Of a DNA stretch of 14,477 bases, positions 1,130 through 12,043 are shown piece by piece. The position numbers and the translations under genes were made by a program. The stretch's first letter is position 1. Each line of letters opens with the position of its first letter. Under the pieces are notes generated by a model. It saw only the letters and a program-made list of their open reading frames with translations, was not told where the DNA came from and ran no database searches. The stretch is from contig JAITLD010000011.1 of NCBI GenBank assembly GCA_031278055.1, positions 1-14,477 of the forward strand. Direction: 5' to 3'. Source of the stretch: Rickettsiales bacterium (GTDB lineage: Bacteria > Pseudomonadota > Alphaproteobacteria > Rs-D84).

Positions 1130-1159
1130 ATTATAAAACTATTTCATTCAACTTGTCAA
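1130..1159 (-). promoter_or_regulatory. Sigma-70-type promoter of the LysRS gene
   Basis: On the minus strand, TTGACA (1154-1159) and TATAAT (1130-1135) are separated by 18 bp; both boxes match consensus exactly. The predicted transcript starts near 1123, giving a leader of about 11 nt before the ATG at 1112. Confidence 0.75.
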
Positions 1160-1182: not shown

Positions 1183-1211
1183 TTGACTTTGGGGTATGCG
1201 GCACTTATAAT
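1183..1211 (+). promoter_or_regulatory. Sigma-70-type promoter of the APH-fold kinase
   Basis: TTGACT (1183-1188), a 17-bp spacer, then TATAAT (1206-1211). The predicted start is near 1218, about 18 nt ahead of the ATG at 1236, and the leader carries a purine-rich GAGAGAG ribosome site. It lies back to back with the LysRS promoter, with 23 bp between the two -35 boxes. Confidence 0.75.
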
Positions 1212-1235: not shown

Positions 1236-2066
1236 ATGAGCAAAGATTTTTTCACAATGAACGACGATTTTTCCGGAATAATAGCCGCCGCGATTCCCGA
1301 TTCGGATTTTTCCGGCGCGCGACAGATTTCCAGCGGATGGACGAACATTGTCTTCAACGTTCCGGCGCGCGATGCGGAATATATCTTTCGATTTCCGCGT
1401 AATCTTTTCTGGACCCAAACGATAGAAAAGGATGTCGCGTTCGCCAATTTTATCGCGCCGTATGTTTCGATAAAAACTCCGCGCGCAAAATTGATGCGCG
1501 ACAAGTTTGGCCGGCCGTTCTCGGCGCATGAAAAACTGCCTGGAAATTGCCTGACCGAAGTCATGGCCGCATTTTCGAGGGAACAAACGGAAAACGCCAT
1601 CAACGGCATTGCTGAATATTTGGCCGAATTGGCGGCCGTTCCAATCCATTCCTTGCCGGAAATCTGCAAGCAAAAAGAAAGCGACTTTCTGGCGGATTTG
1701 GCGAAAGTATACGAAAAATATCACGGTTTTGACAATGCCTTGCTAGACAGGCCGCAGGATGTCGTCGCGCACGGAGACCTGAATCCCGGAAACATTTTGA
1801 CAAATGCCGACGGGACCATAGCAGGAATCATCGATTACGCGTTCGCGGGACTGTCGCATGCGATTTTTGATTTGTCAAACATTATCAGCCGGTGTCCGGA
1901 CGATTGGAAAAAACCGCTTGCCGACGCGTATAAAAAATCAACCGAAAAAAACATCGACGAAAAATTGCTGGATGAATTTATCAATTGCCGGCGCCAGGTC
2001 GAAGTCGGTTATATCAAATATATGAAGGCGGAAATGCCGGAAATCATCCTGCCCGATGGTTTTTGA
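1236..2066 (+). CDS. APH/choline-kinase-fold phosphotransferase
   Basis: A 276-residue protein of the aminoglycoside phosphotransferase-like kinase family (APH, Pfam PF01636), which moves phosphate from ATP to a small hydroxyl or amino substrate. The catalytic Brenner loop HGDLNPGNIL is at 179-188 (catalytic D181, Mg ligand N186), followed by the metal-binding DYAFAG at 200-205 (D200). An N-lobe strand YIFRFPR is at 49-55, with R52 near where related kinases have the ATP-binding Lys; PG at 102-103 fits the lobe hinge region. Substrate cannot be read from sequence: known relatives act on antibiotics, choline, homoserine or fructosamine. Start is the ATG after GAGAGAG, with its own promoter. 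The last 23 bp overlap the end of the convergent zeta-like kinase gene. Nothing nearby gives a pathway, so resistance should not be assumed. Confidence 0.85.
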   Translation: MSKDFFTMNDDFSGIIAAAIPDSDFSGARQISSGWTNIVFNVPARDAEYIFRFPRNLFWTQTIEKDVAFANFIAPYVSIKTPRAKLMRDKFGRPFSAHEKLPGNCLTEVMAAFSREQTENAINGIAEYLAELAAVPIHSLPEICKQKESDFLADLAKVYEKYHGFDNALLDRPQDVVAHGDLNPGNILTNADGTIAGIIDYAFAGLSHAIFDLSNIISRCPDDWKKPLADAYKKSTEKNIDEKLLDEFINCRRQVEVGYIKYMKAEMPEIILPDGF

Positions 2067-2862
2067 ACCATTTGACTTTGGCGTCGAGAAGCTCGATTTC
2101 GGACATGTTTGCCACATCAATCCGCCCGCGGTATCTTTCAATCGTTCGCCGAACTTCTTCGTCGCCGATTTTTCCGACAAAAACTGGATCGGCGTCAAAC
2201 GCGCTCCATACGACCGCAGACGCACCGGTTATAACACCGGCGGCCGCATCCATTCCGGGAAGCAAAACGTCGTAAAAAAAATCCGCGGATTTTTTCAGAA
2301 CGACGCGTCCCTGCTCTATCCCATTGGCGGCCGCGCGTCGTTGAATAAAATTATCCGAAACCGATTTTGGAACTGCTAGAATATGGTATTCGACCGAATA
2401 TCCGGCATTCGCGAGCAGCGAGGAAACATATTTTTCAAATTCGGGCGACAACAATGTCATCTCGAACAACAGGGCGAATCCCGACGCGATCAATTTCTCC
2501 AATGCGAGCAATAATGTCAATAGCGCGAACGCGTTTGTGTTTTCGCGCAATTTTTCATCGCCGAACATTCGGCGGATTTCACCCAAACGCGGATGATATT
2601 TTACAAAATTCCTGACCGCGACATGAACCAGCTCTACCCCGATTGCCCCAAAGAACGCCGCAGCGGCCGGAAATAATTGCGTCGATTTTCCCGACCCGCT
2701 CTGTCCGCAAAGACGCACGCATATCTTGCCTTTGCCGCCCGTGATTTCACAAACCGCTTTATCTGCGGCGGCCAGGCATTCCGCGTCGGAGAAACCCAGG
2801 GACAAATCGTCCGGATTCCAAAATCTTGTGAATTCAATCGCTCTTCGGCGAAGTTTTTCCAT
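2044..2862 (-). CDS. Zeta-toxin-like P-loop kinase
   Basis: A 272-residue P-loop kinase resembling the zeta toxin family (PF06414), which phosphorylates UDP-sugar precursors of the cell wall or other small substrates. Walker A is GQSGSGKST at 53-61. YHPRLGEIRRM (89-99) resembles the HP-containing segment of zeta proteins. LLFEMTL (131-137, E134) matches the place of the family's substrate-loop E-T, and NAGYSVEYHILAVPKSVSDNFIQRR (152-176) is the GY...lavp...R block with R175/R176 as candidate catalytic arginines. The ATG comes 3 nt after the TGA of the CcrM frame with no good ribosome site of its own, so translation is probably coupled to the end of CcrM. No epsilon/PezA-type antitoxin is adjacent, so it may be a chromosomal housekeeping or orphan member and not a toxin. 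The family call is good; the toxic activity is unproven. Confidence 0.75.
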   Translation of the reverse strand: MEKLRRRAIEFTRFWNPDDLSLGFSDAECLAAADKAVCEITGGKGKICVRLCGQSGSGKSTQLFPAAAAFFGAIGVELVHVAVRNFVKYHPRLGEIRRMFGDEKLRENTNAFALLTLLLALEKLIASGFALLFEMTLLSPEFEKYVSSLLANAGYSVEYHILAVPKSVSDNFIQRRAAANGIEQGRVVLKKSADFFYDVLLPGMDAAAGVITGASAVVWSAFDADPVFVGKIGDEEVRRTIERYRGRIDVANMSEIELLDAKVKWFKNHRAG

Positions 2863-2865
2863 ATA

Positions 2866-3150
2866 TCATGCAGCCATCTGCTTTTTAATGTCGCGATAGA
2901 CTGCGCGCAAATCGTCGATTCCAACCAGCTTTCCGTCTTTCCTTTCAACAGACCAGTAATCCCAGCCGTTGAACGACACCGCATTCTGAATTCTCGCCGC
3001 CATAACATGAATCGAAGCGCGTCCAAGCAACGTGTGCCGCAACTGCCCGTCGCGCGTTATCATCACGCGATCGCCGCGGCGCCCGACCAATGTCTGCCCG
3101 ACAGAAAGCAATCCGTTCGCAATCAATTCGGCGAACGCGACTTTTTCCTC
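2866..3150 (-). pseudogene. ccrM: C-terminal (DNA-contacting) domain of CcrM, cut off by an in-frame TAA
   Basis: Directly after the TAA at 3151-3153, and in the same frame as the catalytic part, 94 codons stay open to a TGA at 2866-2868. They encode the domain found at the C-terminus of CcrM: EEKVAFAELIANGLL at the start, then SIH near the middle and FNGWDYWSVE, matching the SIH...NGW...W pattern I recall from CcrM proteins. Catalytic part, stop codon and this domain add up to about 364 codons, close to the 358 residues of Caulobacter CcrM. The only standard restart codon early in it is a TTG at 3124-3126, 24 nt beyond the stop, with no ribosome site directly ahead of it, although an AAGAGG sequence overlaps the stop. 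The domain shows no further damage. It may be made by readthrough, by weak restart, or not at all; a base-call error is also possible. Confidence 0.8.
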
Positions 3151-3960
3151 TTACCTTTTCGGCCTTGCGACCTCTATCTGCGATAAATCAACCGACCCGA
3201 CGGACGCAATGCGTTCGCGCGCCGCTGCGACATACTTTTCATCCCGCTCGATTCCGATAAAATTACGCGACAATTCGCGCGCCGCCGCCCCCGTCGTTCC
3301 AGATCCGAAAAATGGATCCAAAATCGTGTCGCCCGCCCGCGTGCTGGACAGAATTACGCGACGCAGCAATTCAAGCGGCTTTTGCGTGCTGTGCAGGGAT
3401 TTTCCGTTTTCGTCTTTCAATCGTTCGGCCCCCAAACAAATGTCGATGTGCCAGTCCGACCGCATTTGCTTGCCATTATTGTATTTTTTCATCGTTTCAT
3501 AATTGAACGCGTATTTTCCGGTTTTACGCGGCGTCGCCCAAATCAACGTCTCATGCGCGTTGGCAAACCGAGTCCCGCGAAAATTCGGCATTGGATTTGT
3601 CTTTACCCACACAATATCATTCAAAACCCAAAACCCAAGCTCTTGCATAATCCGGCCTATGCGGAAAATATTGTGATACGTTCCGATCGCCCACATAGAA
3701 CCGTCCGGTTTCAAAATGCGCTTGCATTCGACAAGCCATTTTTCGGTGAATTCATCATAGGCCTCCGGCGTTTCGAACCCGTCCCATGAATCGCGCACGG
3801 CGCGGGTCGCGGTCTGGTCCTCGGGCCTGTAAAGAACCTTTTTTCCCAGTTGCAGGTTATACGGCGGATCGGCAAAAACAGCGTCAACCGAACCGTCTGG
3901 AATCCGCGGCAGGACATCTATGCAGTCGCCCGCAAAAACTTTGTTAATAAATTCTCTCAC
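3151..3960 (-). CDS. ccrM: CcrM-type adenine-N6 DNA methyltransferase (GANTC), catalytic domain
   Basis: Beta-class N6-adenine methyltransferase. CcrM methylates GANTC and acts as a cell-cycle regulator in alphaproteobacteria. The catalytic DPPYNLQL is at 31-38 and comes before the AdoMet-binding DPFFGSGTTG at 215-224, the beta-class order. NPMPNFRGTRFANAHETLIW (122-141) and HSTQKPLELLRR (190-201) are typical of the CcrM/HinfI group. Start is the GTG at 3958-3960: a TAA lies two codons upstream in frame, and the next possible starts would cut into the conserved GDCIDVL segment. The product ends at a TAA after residue 269, where CcrM should continue into its C-terminal domain; that domain is intact downstream in the same frame. 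In Caulobacter the C-terminal domain is needed for DNA binding, so the 269-residue product alone is doubtful as an active GANTC methylase. Confidence 0.9.
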   Translation of the reverse strand: MREFINKVFAGDCIDVLPRIPDGSVDAVFADPPYNLQLGKKVLYRPEDQTATRAVRDSWDGFETPEAYDEFTEKWLVECKRILKPDGSMWAIGTYHNIFRIGRIMQELGFWVLNDIVWVKTNPMPNFRGTRFANAHETLIWATPRKTGKYAFNYETMKKYNNGKQMRSDWHIDICLGAERLKDENGKSLHSTQKPLELLRRVILSSTRAGDTILDPFFGSGTTGAAARELSRNFIGIERDEKYVAAARERIASVGSVDLSQIEVARPKR

Positions 3961-4122: not shown

Positions 4123-4875
4123 ATGGAAAAGTTAGGCATAATGTCATTTTCAAAAATGGGAATGGGACTTAATAAAGAAAGTCATGGATACCATGTAATA
4201 GAGGATTTGGCCGAGGAAATCTCCGGCCGTCCGGTTTATAAAATTTGGAGCAACTGGCCGAAAGATATGGACGGATACAAAGAACAAAACCTGCACGTAA
4301 AGAGATACGTTCAGATATTGCTGGCAAGATGCGAACGCCTGCTCGTGTTCTCCGAAGACCATTCCCTGGTCGCGGGAATATTTTCATCGTTCGGTATACA
4401 GCCTTTCAATATGACTTACATAGATTCGCACCCAGACTTCAACACCTGGACCAGCTCGATAACAAAATTGCCGCACGGAATGTCATTGGCGACATTGTGC
4501 GGAATGGAGGGGCCATATTTCAAAGACCTGGCCGGTAAAATCGAAAATCTGCAAATTATAGGCGGCTACGAGGCGGAGCCACAGGAAATCGAGCACTTGA
4601 AGCGCCTGTCTTATAGTTGCATGAAACCTGTCGAATTCCAATATCACGGCGATTGGAAAAACAATGGATTATCGCTTGACCTAGACGCGATAAAAGATTT
4701 CAAGGCCTGCAACTATCATGTAGGCGTGATGACTTATGATGAAATCCGGCCTGTTGTCAAGAAATTGCGCGGCAGTAAAATCATAGAAATTTCTGAATTC
4801 AATCCCGACAATGGATACGACGATTACGAAAAAAACATTATCGGCGAACTATTGCGGACAATTATCAGCGCATGA
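4123..4875 (+). CDS. Divergent arginase/agmatinase-superfamily protein
   Basis: A 250-residue protein with the ureohydrolase metal-site pattern, so probably a binuclear-metal (Mn) hydrolase of a guanidino or amidino compound. The usual ligands are all present in order: H80 in SEDHS (family GGDHS), D101, H103 and D105 in YIDSHPDF (family DAHxD), and D186 and D188 in SLDLDAI (family SxDxDxxDP). HGM at 118-120 and EISEFNP (222-228) match the later family blocks. It departs from standard arginases and agmatinases by its shorter length, by SED in place of GGD, and by losing the P after the last Asp pair, so the substrate cannot be named. Start is supported by AAGGGAG four bases ahead of the ATG. 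It is a single-gene unit, divergent from ccrM and convergent with the OmpA-like gene. Confidence 0.75.
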   Translation: MEKLGIMSFSKMGMGLNKESHGYHVIEDLAEEISGRPVYKIWSNWPKDMDGYKEQNLHVKRYVQILLARCERLLVFSEDHSLVAGIFSSFGIQPFNMTYIDSHPDFNTWTSSITKLPHGMSLATLCGMEGPYFKDLAGKIENLQIIGGYEAEPQEIEHLKRLSYSCMKPVEFQYHGDWKNNGLSLDLDAIKDFKACNYHVGVMTYDEIRPVVKKLRGSKIIEISEFNPDNGYDDYEKNIIGELLRTIISA

Positions 4876-7781: not shown

Positions 7782-8779
7782 TATTTATCCTTCTTGTGCT
7801 TCAAATGCGGCAAATGTAGTTTCGGCAGGGAAAACATCCGCCATTTCTTCATTTTATTCCGCAAATAATGCTCGTATATAAAAAACGTCATCCCGACACC
7901 GAACAACGGTAGCAGAAAAAATATGATTCTGAACGCAAGCAGACAGCCGAATAATACCGCCTTGTCCGCGCTGTCCGGCATTCCCAATAAAAAGACGCTT
8001 TCGAACACGCCGATTCCGCCGGGGACTTGGGCGAAAATTCCCGCAGCCTGCGCTATCACGAAAATGGCCACGAATTCCACAACCGAAATATCTATCGCGT
8101 GCATTGTCAGAAAATATAGCACCAATCCCGCAAGAACGCTGTCCGTCGTTCCGAGAAGACATTGCTCGACCGCCATGCGCGGCGATGGAACGCGGAACAC
8201 TATGTCGCCTATTCTGAAAGTCTTTCCCTGAAAAAACAAGCTCGCGAAAAAATACACGCCGAGTAGCGCGCAACATACGCCGAATAAAAACCGCATTACG
8301 GGAATAGACGCGCCGCCGCTACCGGACAGCATGAAATATCCTATTAATGTCGCAGTCGCCGCGCCCAAAAAATAAGTGAATCCTGAAAACGTCAGCATTT
8401 TGACGATTTCCCCCGCCCGAACGCGCCATCTGGTATACAGCCGATACCGAATGGCCCCGCCGCTGATTGCCGCGTTTCCGGCATTATTGGAAACGGCAAA
8501 CCCCAGCGAGCCGGCCAACATCCATTTCCACCAAGCCAAACGTTTTCCGATATAGCACAAGGCCAGAAAATCATAGCATGACAACACCAAATATTCCGCC
8601 AAACACGCGGTCATGGACCAGATTATGCTGGGCAGCGGAATTTGCGTTACGGAATGCAATACATCTTCGATCGAATATTTATGCAGCTGCCAATAAAGCA
8701 TCCAAACGGCCAGCGCAAAAAATACCACGCCTATGCGCGAAAACATCTTTTTGAAAATTCGCCTTGTCCGTGCCGACAT
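7781..8779 (-). CDS. MprF-flippase-like / UPF0104 (YbhN) family membrane protein
   Basis: A 332-residue polytopic inner-membrane protein of the lysylphosphatidylglycerol synthase transmembrane family (PF03706), the part of MprF that flips aminoacylated lipids. Family landmarks: GFAVSNNAGNAAISGGAIRYRLY (93-115), QVPGGIGVFESVFLL (about 252-266) and a run of about eight hydrophobic segments. The basic tail (HLPHLKHKKDK) is presumably cytoplasmic. The soluble synthase domain of MprF is absent, as in stand-alone UPF0104 members, so it may transport a lipid or act in envelope homeostasis; the substrate is unknown. The ATG has an AAAAGG ribosome site unusually close, one base away; ATG at codon 12 is an alternative. 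First gene of a coupled pair with map and divergent from the amidase gene 42 bp away. Confidence 0.85.
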   Translation of the reverse strand: MSARTRRIFKKMFSRIGVVFFALAVWMLYWQLHKYSIEDVLHSVTQIPLPSIIWSMTACLAEYLVLSCYDFLALCYIGKRLAWWKWMLAGSLGFAVSNNAGNAAISGGAIRYRLYTRWRVRAGEIVKMLTFSGFTYFLGAATATLIGYFMLSGSGGASIPVMRFLFGVCCALLGVYFFASLFFQGKTFRIGDIVFRVPSPRMAVEQCLLGTTDSVLAGLVLYFLTMHAIDISVVEFVAIFVIAQAAGIFAQVPGGIGVFESVFLLGMPDSADKAVLFGCLLAFRIIFFLLPLFGVGMTFFIYEHYLRNKMKKWRMFSLPKLHLPHLKHKKDK

Positions 8780-8784
8780 GCCTT

Positions 8785-8813
8785 TTGACCAGAAGCGATA
8801 TTTATGGTATAAT
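8785..8813 (+). promoter_or_regulatory. Strong promoter giving a probably leaderless amidase mRNA
   Basis: TTGACC (8785-8790), 17-bp spacer, TATAAT (8808-8813). Transcription should begin at about 8819-8821, one to three bases before the ATG at 8822, and there is no Shine-Dalgarno-like sequence in between. Confidence 0.75.
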
Positions 8814-8821
8814 TTTTACGA

Positions 8822-9979: not shown

Positions 9980-12043
9980 TTACTCCACAACCAGCTCTTT
10001 ATTTTTCACATCCACTTTGATGGTTCCTCCGTCGGAAAGCCGACCAGAAAGAAGTTTGTCCGCAATCGGGTCTTCCACATTATTCGTTATGAATCGCCGC
10101 AATGGCCGCGCCCCGTAATTCATGTCGAATCCGTTGCAAGCCAGCCATTCGATTGCTTTATCAGATACATAAAGAGTTATCCGCCGCATGGCCAGGCGTC
10201 GCTCCAAATCCGCCAGCTGGATTTTCACAATCTGCGGCATTTCCTTGATCGTCAATGCATTGAAGAACACGAATTCATCAACGCGATTTACAAATTCCGG
10301 CATAAAATGTTTTTTCACGGCTTCCTCATCCCTGAGGTTGCCGGTCATGATGATTATGGTGTTGGCAAAATTCACAATGTGGCCCTGTCCGTCCGTCAGC
10401 CGTCCATCGTCTAAAATTTGCAAAAATAATTTCAAAACATCCGCATGCGCCTTTTCTATTTCATCGAACAAAATAACCTGATACGGACGACGCCTGATTG
10501 ATTCGGTCAGGATTCCGCCCCTGTCGTACCCGACGTATCCGGGGGGCGATCCGATCAGGCGCGCGACGCTGTGCGGCTCCATATATTCGCTCATATCAAT
10601 TCTCGTCATCGCGGTCTCGTCATTGAACAACTGCTCCGCCAATGCTTTCGCCAATTCGGTTTTTCCAACGCCCGTCGGGCCCAGGAACATGAACGAACCT
10701 ATCGGCCGACGCGGACTGGCAAGTCCGGCACGGCTGCGTCGAATAGCGCGCGCGACGGCCGACAGCGCCCCGTCCTGTCCGATAACCCGCTTGCGCAATT
10801 CATCTTCAAGATTCAGCAGGCGCGTCTGTTCGTCATTCGTCAACTTGTCCGCCGGGACGCCCGCCCACTTCGATACAACGGCCTCTATCTGCGCCGGCAT
10901 GACCGTTTTATAATCCGCAGCCGCGTTATCTTTTTCCAATTCGGCTATTTTCTTTTCCAATTCCGGAACCCTGCCGTATTGCAGGGACGACGCTTTTTCA
11001 AAATCCCCGTTCCGCATTGCGATTGCTATGTCATTCTTCACATTTTCAAGCTCCGTCATTGCGGATGATAACGCGTGCATTTGCTTTTGTCCGGCTTGCC
11101 ATTCGGCGGACAATTTCTTTTCTTCCGTCTCGACGTCGGAGATTTCTTTTTCCAAATCGGCCAGACGTTTTTTCGAATCCGCGTCTTTCTCTTTCTTCAA
11201 AGCGGACTGCTCGATTTTAAGCTGCATCAGGCGCCGCGTCGCCTCGTCCAATTTTTCAGGCCGCGACGATATTTCTATACGCAGGCGCGCCGCCGCCTCG
11301 TCCATCAAATCGATTGCCTTGTCCGGCAGAAATCTGTCAGTTACATACCGGTCGGACAGGCGCGCGGCCGCAACTATCGCGGAATCCGAAATGCGGACCC
11401 CGTGATGTTGCTCGTATTTTTCCTTTAATCCGCGCAAGATAGAAATCGTATCGTCGACCGACGGCGCGTCGACGAACACGGGCTGGAACCTGCGCGCAAG
11501 CGCGGGATCCTTTTCTATGTATTCGCGGTATTCGTCCAATGTCGTCGCGCCCATGCAATGCAATTCGCCGCGCGCCAACATCGGCTTCAAAAGATTGCCC
11601 GCGTCCATCGCTCCGTCGGCTTTTCCGGCGCCGACCATCGTGTGCAACTCGTCGATAAACAGTATGATTTCGCCGTTTGATTCCTTGACTCCTTTCAAAA
11701 CGGACTTCATCCTTTCCTCGAATTCGCCGCGGTATTTCGCGCCCGCCAACAAGGCGCCCAAATCCAGCGACAATAATTTTTTGCGCGTCAGGGATTCCGG
11801 CACGTCGCCCGAAATTATTCGGCCGGCCAATCCTTCGACAATCGCGGTCTTGCCGACGCCCGCGTTTCCGATTAGAACTGGATTATTTTTTGTGCGACGC
11901 GACAGAACCTGAATTGTGCGACGAATTTCATCATCGCGTCCAATAACGGGATCAAGTTTTCCGCCCGCCGCCAGTTCCGTAAAATCCGTCGTGTATTTTT
12001 TCAGTGCCTCGGATGGCTTTAATTCCTGTTCTTCCGGATTCAT
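9980..12043 (-). CDS. clpB: ClpB disaggregase lacking the N-terminal domain
   Basis: Hexameric Hsp104/ClpB-type AAA+ protein that extracts polypeptides from aggregates with DnaK. NBD1: Walker A GNAGVGKT (59-66), Walker B LFIDE (128-132), pore loop AKYRGEF (102-108). A ClpB-type coiled M domain spans about 265-375, which separates it from ClpA and ClpC. NBD2: Walker A GPTGVGKT (455-462), Walker B LFDE (525-528), pore loop GYVGYDRGG (502-510), NR finger region PEFVNRVDE (582-590), sensor 2 GARPLRR. At 687 residues it is about 170 shorter than usual: the whole N domain (about 150) is absent, and about 19 residues are missing between MTGNL and MPEF compared with E. coli ClpB. The start is firm, with AGAGG five bases before the ATG and a promoter just upstream. 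No ClpN-like sequence was seen upstream in any frame. Confidence 0.93.

What the first reader, a model, noticed from the sequence alone, without database searches (positions are those of the whole stretch)
2866..3960. CcrM split by a single in-frame TAA with the C-terminal domain kept intact
The catalytic domain (269 codons) ends at TAA 3151-3153. The same frame then stays open for 94 codons that encode the CcrM C-terminal domain (SIH, NGW and W landmarks present), so total length matches normal CcrM. In a dying gene one would expect more damage, yet the rest looks conserved and the next gene starts 3 nt after the domain's stop, which suggests ribosomes still reach it. Possible explanations: stop-codon readthrough giving a small pool of active methylase, restart at TTG 3126 giving a two-piece enzyme, a very recent null mutation, or a base-call error. 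A split or readthrough-controlled cell-cycle methylase would be new to me.
Basis: partly seen in the sequence, partly recalled or inferred. Interest (0 to 1): 0.75.

Follow-up and report, generated by a model that had tools for sequence, protein, structure and literature searches.

The report
Cell-cycle methylase gene, recently stopped
A DNA-methylating enzyme gene (ccrM) of an uncultured gut-type alphaproteobacterium carries one stop codon between its two domains; the relatives examined do not share it, so it is most likely a very recent loss of the gene (or an assembly error), not a new kind of split or readthrough enzyme.

Summary
On the minus strand a 269-codon CcrM catalytic domain ends at TAA 3151-3153, and the same frame stays open for 94 codons that encode the RAMA-type C-terminal domain, with its DNA-contact residues kept. 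The stop is private to this genome. 109 of 109 aligned relative loci are one-piece, and of 134 family genomes with a RAMA match (142 searched) only this one shows a stop in the matched frame. No second assembly of the species was found.

The C-part shows no decay (1 of 44 conserved columns changed; ordinary branch-length ratio). If unused, the stop is younger than about 0.05 neutral substitutions per site. Nothing points to readthrough: the stop is not conserved, the RNA fold is ordinary, no TAA-reading tRNA appears in the sampled contigs, and TAA is the usual stop. CcrM looks dispensable in this family.

Best reading: a very recent nonsense allele that abolishes or cripples CcrM. Main rival: assembly or strain-consensus error. 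A leaky or two-piece enzyme is not excluded but unlikely.

The parts
3151..3960 (-). ccrM catalytic (methyltransferase) part, 269 codons from GTG 3960, with its stop
   Evidence: PF01555 218.6 bits; PDB 6pbd E 4e-99
3151..3153 (-). [quoted passage not shown]
   Evidence: absent from 109 of 109 relative loci
2866..3150 (-). ccrM C-terminal (RAMA) part, 94 codons, with its TGA 2866-2868
   Evidence: PF18755 38.3 bits; PDB 6pbd E 3e-8
2866..3126 (-). 86-aa ORF that a restart at TTG 3126 would make; lacks the first 8 residues of the C-part
   Evidence: ORF list; same protein in the database as P0121 from the window's own contig
2044..2862 (-). downstream Zeta_toxin-family (PF06414) gene, 272 aa, ATG 3 nt after the ccrM frame ends; context only
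   Evidence: 65.7 bits; no match outside the window's own loci among the loci held
4123..4875 (+). divergent neighbour, weak Arginase-family match; supports orthology of the locus; context only
   Evidence: PF00491 24.9 bits; 69.8% identical gene beside ccrM in congener G002

Best explanation
The locus is an orthologous ccrM gene that acquired a nonsense mutation very recently in this lineage, in the linker between the catalytic and the C-terminal (RAMA) domain. Shown: the stop is in the sequence, no relative examined has it, and the C-part shows no decay. Inferred: ribosomes release a 269-aa catalytic domain. By the published CcrM dimer structure the C-terminal domain of one subunit holds the non-target strand while the other subunit methylates, so the truncated product should be inactive or nearly so on double-stranded GANTC. 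The cell tolerates the loss because CcrM is not strictly needed in this genome-reduced lineage. The C-part looks intact only because little time has passed.
For: Stop private to this genome: 109 of 109 relative loci one-piece; only row with a stop in the matched frame among the RAMA matches of 134 genomes. C-part undecayed, which bounds the age of an unused C-part at about 0.05 neutral substitutions per site. The rest of the assembly looks sound: of about 140 genes compared, ccrM is the only one whose internal stop is not explained by an uninterrupted ORF in another frame. CcrM appears lost or broken elsewhere in the family: no CcrM-grade match in 7 of 142 genomes, among them G033 (98% complete) and G126 (93%), and a TGA plus frameshift in G158. 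Published: deleting the C-terminal domain abolishes activity (PMC6787082); ccrM dispensable in slow growth (PMC3973325) and for viability in Caulobacter (PMC3885167).
Against: No reads and no second assembly, so the stop itself is unconfirmed. Constraint on the C-part is also what a still-used domain would show. GANTC statistics do not separate CcrM-bearing from CcrM-lacking genomes. GcrA, the partner regulator, is intact here, though it is also kept in genomes without CcrM.
Confidence: 0.57

Rival explanations
1. The stop is not in the living population, or only in a minority of it: a consensus or assembly error, or an uncommon strain allele picked by the MAG assembler.
For: One contig of one 83%-complete, 92-contig genome; no second assembly of the species found; the rest of the frame is intact, as expected if nothing is really broken.
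Against: It is a base difference, not an indel, and the sampled genes show no frameshift that survived inspection and no other accepted internal stop, so the assembly is not error-rich. The N-free contig runs 14,477 bases.
Confidence: 0.28
2. [quoted passage not shown]
For: C-part undecayed, DNA-contact residues kept; trans use of the domain in the dimer (PMC6787082 passages); an in-frame TTG at 3126.
Against: Stop in no relative examined; ordinary RNA fold after it (z 0.06 and -1.31); no TAA-reading tRNA among 11 found in 40 of 92 contigs; TAA is the commonest stop (121 of 239); the restart would drop the first 8 residues of the domain. UAA being an efficient terminator read by both release factors is recalled.
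Confidence: 0.1
3. The 269-aa catalytic domain alone has become a sufficient GANTC methylase and the C-part is discarded.
For: M.HhaII recognises GANTC and lacks the domain (PMC10359602 passage); residues matching CcrM K118, R129, H134 and R179 are kept (named).
Against: Deletion of the domain from CcrM abolishes activity (PMC6787082); the domain is kept in 109 of 109 aligned relatives; no sign that the catalytic part has changed unusually (7 of 164 conserved columns, against 6-17 of 167-168 in three congeners).
Confidence: 0.05

Closest known systems
CcrM, orphan GANTC N6-adenine methyltransferase of Alphaproteobacteria (Caulobacter, PDB 6pbd)
   Same: Both domains, order, length and key residues
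   Different: Here a stop codon separates the domains; activity unknown
Family pseudogene: broken ccrM of genome G158
   Same: A ccrM gene disrupted in a MAG of the same family, C-part still readable
   Different: G158 has two lesions (TGA and frameshift) inside the catalytic part; the window has one stop in the linker
M.HhaII, GANTC methylase without the C-terminal domain
   Same: Domain content would resemble the truncated 269-aa product
   Different: Naturally domain-free enzyme, known here only from one passage (PMC10359602); not aligned

Membership tests
CcrM family | catalytic N6_N4_Mtase domain close to CcrM | tested here: met
   PF01555 218.6 bits; 6pbd E 4e-99; 71-81% identity to most family orthologues
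CcrM family | C-terminal RAMA domain in the same polypeptide | tested here: not met
   Domain is encoded in frame but behind a TAA
CcrM family | methylates GANTC | not testable with these tools
   no methylation data; GANTC statistics inconclusive
nonsense-disrupted gene (pseudogene) | lesion absent from orthologues | tested here: met
   109 of 109 loci; 133 of 133 other family genomes with a RAMA match show no stop in the matched stretch, though G158 is broken upstream of it
nonsense-disrupted gene (pseudogene) | relaxed constraint after the lesion | tested here: not met
   1 of 44 conserved columns departs, against 2-3 of 46 in three intact congeners; only a very young lesion fits
programmed stop-codon readthrough | stop conserved across relatives | tested here: not met
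programmed stop-codon readthrough | stimulating RNA structure after the stop | tested here: not met
   z 0.06 (120 nt) and -1.31 (70 nt)
programmed stop-codon readthrough | suppressor tRNA | tested here: inconclusive
   none among 11 tRNAs in 40 of 92 contigs, none in the window; 52 contigs not scanned for tRNAs apart from the window's own
two-piece (split) enzyme | independent start with ribosome site for the second piece, conserved in relatives | tested here: not met
   relatives are one-piece; TTG 3126 lies about 20 nt from the purine run

The most novel reading that the evidence does not exclude
Stop-limited CcrM: termination in the linker makes mostly catalytic subunits, and rare readthrough (or a restarted C-terminal piece) supplies the domain that acts in trans in the dimer, so that the amount of active methylase is set at translation.
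Probability: 0.06. Interest if true: 0.7.

Novelty: new member of a known kind. Interest (0 to 1): 0.2.

Why it matters
If the stop is real, it catches the loss of a master cell-cycle methylase almost as it happens, in a genome-reduced lineage in which some relatives have no detectable CcrM and yet keep its partner GcrA. That would let one ask what changes first at GANTC-dependent promoters when CcrM goes. If the stop is an artefact, nothing changes. A leaky or split CcrM would be new, but the evidence does not point there.

Tried and rejected
Genome-wide reassignment of TAA: rejected, since TAA ends 121 of 239 long ORFs in the 40-contig sample (a mechanical longest-ORF set, so rough).

GANTC depletion as a clock for CcrM loss: observed/expected is 0.91 here; 0.87, 0.92 and 1.13 in three CcrM-bearing genomes (G004, G035, G013); 0.98, 1.00 and 0.87 in three without (G033, G126, G019). 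No separation; inconclusive (first smaller run).

Second assembly of the species: none found. Best non-self protein 84% identical (120 listed of 8000 scored; the window's own cluster has 2 member sequences on 1 contig, and what the second is was not shown); nearest congener DNA 74% identical. The tool warns that records of this genome or one very near may be left out.

Other split ccrM genes: the C-part search gave 22 proteins, one of them the window's own 86-aa ORF. I read 11 sequences (the window's own and 10 of the 21 others). Several look like fragments of genes seen intact elsewhere; P0140 has an unrelated start on a 13,046-base contig and was not resolved.

G146 looked split, but the junction is a run of N; dropped.

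Broken-gene scan: internal stops flagged were mainly off-frame or antisense matches. The codon-position filter did not remove all of them; the remaining four G000 cases besides ccrM were set aside because an uninterrupted ORF in another frame covers 100% of each. Frameshift flags in G000: one is a pair of tandem matches in full, one lies over a thioredoxin-like gene on the other strand, one is a weak match; set aside by eye.

RAMA-less 261-aa relative in G126 (44% identical): sits between DpnM-like and DpnII-like ORFs, set aside as a restriction-modification gene, from reading and recall.

Literature: searches showed no title or abstract start about a split or readthrough CcrM; papers opened are named in the full report, as passages or one section. 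Structure prediction and fold search were not run, since they could not decide between the explanations.

Full report
WHAT IS THERE. On the minus strand GTG 3960 opens a frame of 269 codons ending at TAA 3151-3153; the same frame continues for 94 codons to TGA 2866-2868. The first part is a PF01555 methyltransferase (218.6 bits), the second a PF18755 RAMA domain (38.3 bits; cut-off 35.2). Both match Caulobacter CcrM, PDB 6pbd, at E 4e-99 and 3e-8. The stop falls in what the structure paper calls the linker (residues 261-270), just before the C-terminal domain (271-358) (PMC6787082, passages; the offset of 8 between chain and paper numbering is my inference from Pro271). Residues S315, H317, N330, W332 and R350, named there as invariant residues of integrity or phosphate binding (section 10), are kept in the window's C-part. 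So are K118, R129, H134 and R179 in the catalytic part (named).

HOST. The window is a contig of a 673,913-base, 92-contig, 83% complete genome with a single PF01555 match. The related records in genome contigs are MAGs titled mostly uncultured Alphaproteobacteria or proteobacterium, some Candidatus Enterousia, two Rickettsiales bacterium. A paper puts Enterousia in the reduced-genome order Rs-D84 (PMC12306168, passages). That the window belongs there is my inference from these neighbours.

IS THE STOP SHARED? Not in anything examined. I took 109 relative loci: 29 of the best matches and the 80 best of 218 (89 distinct genes; chosen as best matches, so leaning towards intact ones). All 109 are full length, and the 89 distinct ones are 364-366 aa. 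The column of the stop holds D 38, A 27, E 22, N 1, T 1. A less selected view: a RAMA search of 142 family genomes found a match in 134 (the window's own included), and the window's is the only row with a stop in the matched frame. Of four congeners, G001, G002 and G004 have an uninterrupted gene and G003 (82% complete) has no match. Of 120 proteins listed out of 8,000 scored, only the window's own is 269 aa long; the next is 84% identical and 364 aa. There is thus no second assembly of this species to confirm or refute the stop.

IS THE C-PART DECAYING? No sign of it. At columns at least 97% conserved among the 89 relatives the window departs at 1 of 44 in the C-part and 7 of 164 in the catalytic part; three congeners depart at 2-3 of 46 and 6-17 of 167-168. 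C-part dN against these congeners is 0.14-0.23, with dS 1.5-2.8, near saturation. On a fixed tree of 97 sequences the window's terminal branch is 0.179 in the catalytic part and 0.155 in the C-part. The ratio, 0.86, is above the median of 0.69 but is reached or passed by 27 of 73 other tips. In a simulation an unconstrained C-part shows at most 1 departure with probability 0.08 at 0.04 and 0.04 at 0.05 neutral substitutions per site. So either the stop is young on that scale, or the C-part is still used; sequence alone cannot choose.

READTHROUGH OR RESTART. No positive sign. TAA is the commonest stop in the sampled contigs, 121 of 239 long ORFs. Eleven tRNAs were found in 40 of 92 contigs and none reads TAA; the window has none. 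RNA folding after the stop is ordinary, z 0.06 for 120 nt and -1.31 for 70 nt. That UAA is an efficient terminator recognised by both release factors is recalled. A restart at TTG 3126 would drop the first 8 residues of the C-part. [quoted passage not shown] the same paper says deletion of the domain abolishes activity.

CAN THESE BACTERIA LOSE CCRM? Probably. Eight of 142 family genomes have no RAMA match: G003, G017, G019, G031, G033, G126, G133, G175. Searching these with the catalytic part gave nothing in G003, G017 and G031; only distant methylases (26-44% identity) in G019, G033, G126 and G175; and in G133 a 112-residue partial match at 62% near a contig end. G033 is 98% complete in 6 contigs and G126 93% in 4; G017, G031, G003 and G175 are 54-82% complete, so absence there means little. 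The ccrM of G158 has an in-frame TGA and a frameshift close together. Published: ccrM is dispensable in slow growth (PMC3973325, passages) and for viability in Caulobacter (PMC3885167, passages).

IS THE ASSEMBLY BAD? It does not look so. ORFs from 800 kb of G035 aligned to the 40 sampled contigs plus the window gave 140 genes (42,430 aa) after a codon-position filter, with 8 internal stops in 5 of them. For the four besides ccrM an uninterrupted ORF in another frame covers 100% of the stretch, so I read them as off-frame matches; for ccrM the best other-frame ORF covers 55%. ORFs from 20 contigs of G004 gave 21 genes and no internal stop in G000. Frameshift flags were set aside on inspection. 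In the other direction one G004 gene (L175) shows a lone in-frame TAA, though a reverse-strand ORF covers 99% of it.

NEIGHBOURS. The downstream gene, 2044-2862, is a Zeta_toxin-family protein (PF06414, 65.7 bits); outside the window's own loci none held has it. In the eight relative loci printed there, other sequence follows ccrM, in some a terminator-like repeat (by eye). The argument that ribosomes must reach it is therefore weak. The divergent gene 4123-4875 is kept beside ccrM in G002 (69.8% identity), which supports orthology. GcrA is present and uninterrupted in G000.

VERDICT. Most likely a very recent nonsense allele of ccrM (0.57); next an assembly or consensus error (0.28); then a leaky or two-piece functional gene (0.10); then a self-sufficient catalytic domain (0.05). 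These odds are judgement. Shown: sequence, privacy of the stop among relatives examined, lack of decay. Inferred: truncated product, loss of methylation, tolerance of the loss. The searches listed no title or abstract start reporting a split or readthrough CcrM.

Noticed in passing
[quoted passage not shown] G033 is 98% and G126 93% complete.
   Followed up: partly
L223 (G158:C8:9800-11900): ccrM of another family member is broken by an in-frame TGA and a frameshift close together, with the C-part still readable.
   Followed up: partly
2044-2862 and 1236-2066: A Zeta_toxin-family gene and an APH-family phosphotransferase gene lie convergent and overlap by 23 bases; neither was found in other loci held.
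   Followed up: partly
P0014 (349 aa, 2250-base contig): A CcrM relative whose C-part seems to lack an internal stretch before the SIH motif; RAMA is not in its precomputed domains.
   Followed up: no
P0140 (128 aa, 13,046-base contig): A RAMA-bearing short protein with an unrelated-looking start, possibly a disrupted ccrM elsewhere.
   Followed up: no
L175 (G004:C4) 7791-8819: A gene 47% identical to a 409-aa ORF of G000 shows a lone in-frame TAA; a reverse-strand ORF covers 99% of it, so the case is open.
   Followed up: partly
9980-12043: ClpB-like gene of 687 aa with both AAA modules, apparently without the usual N-terminal domain (the usual length is recalled).
   Followed up: no
1130-1159 (-) and 1183-1211 (+): Divergent sigma-70-like sites matching 12 of 12 and 11 of 12 consensus bases between the ORFs starting at 1112 (-) and 1236 (+).
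   Followed up: no
L214 (G126): A DpnII-like restriction-modification cluster carrying a RAMA-less methylase 44% identical to the CcrM catalytic part (naming partly recalled).
   Followed up: partly
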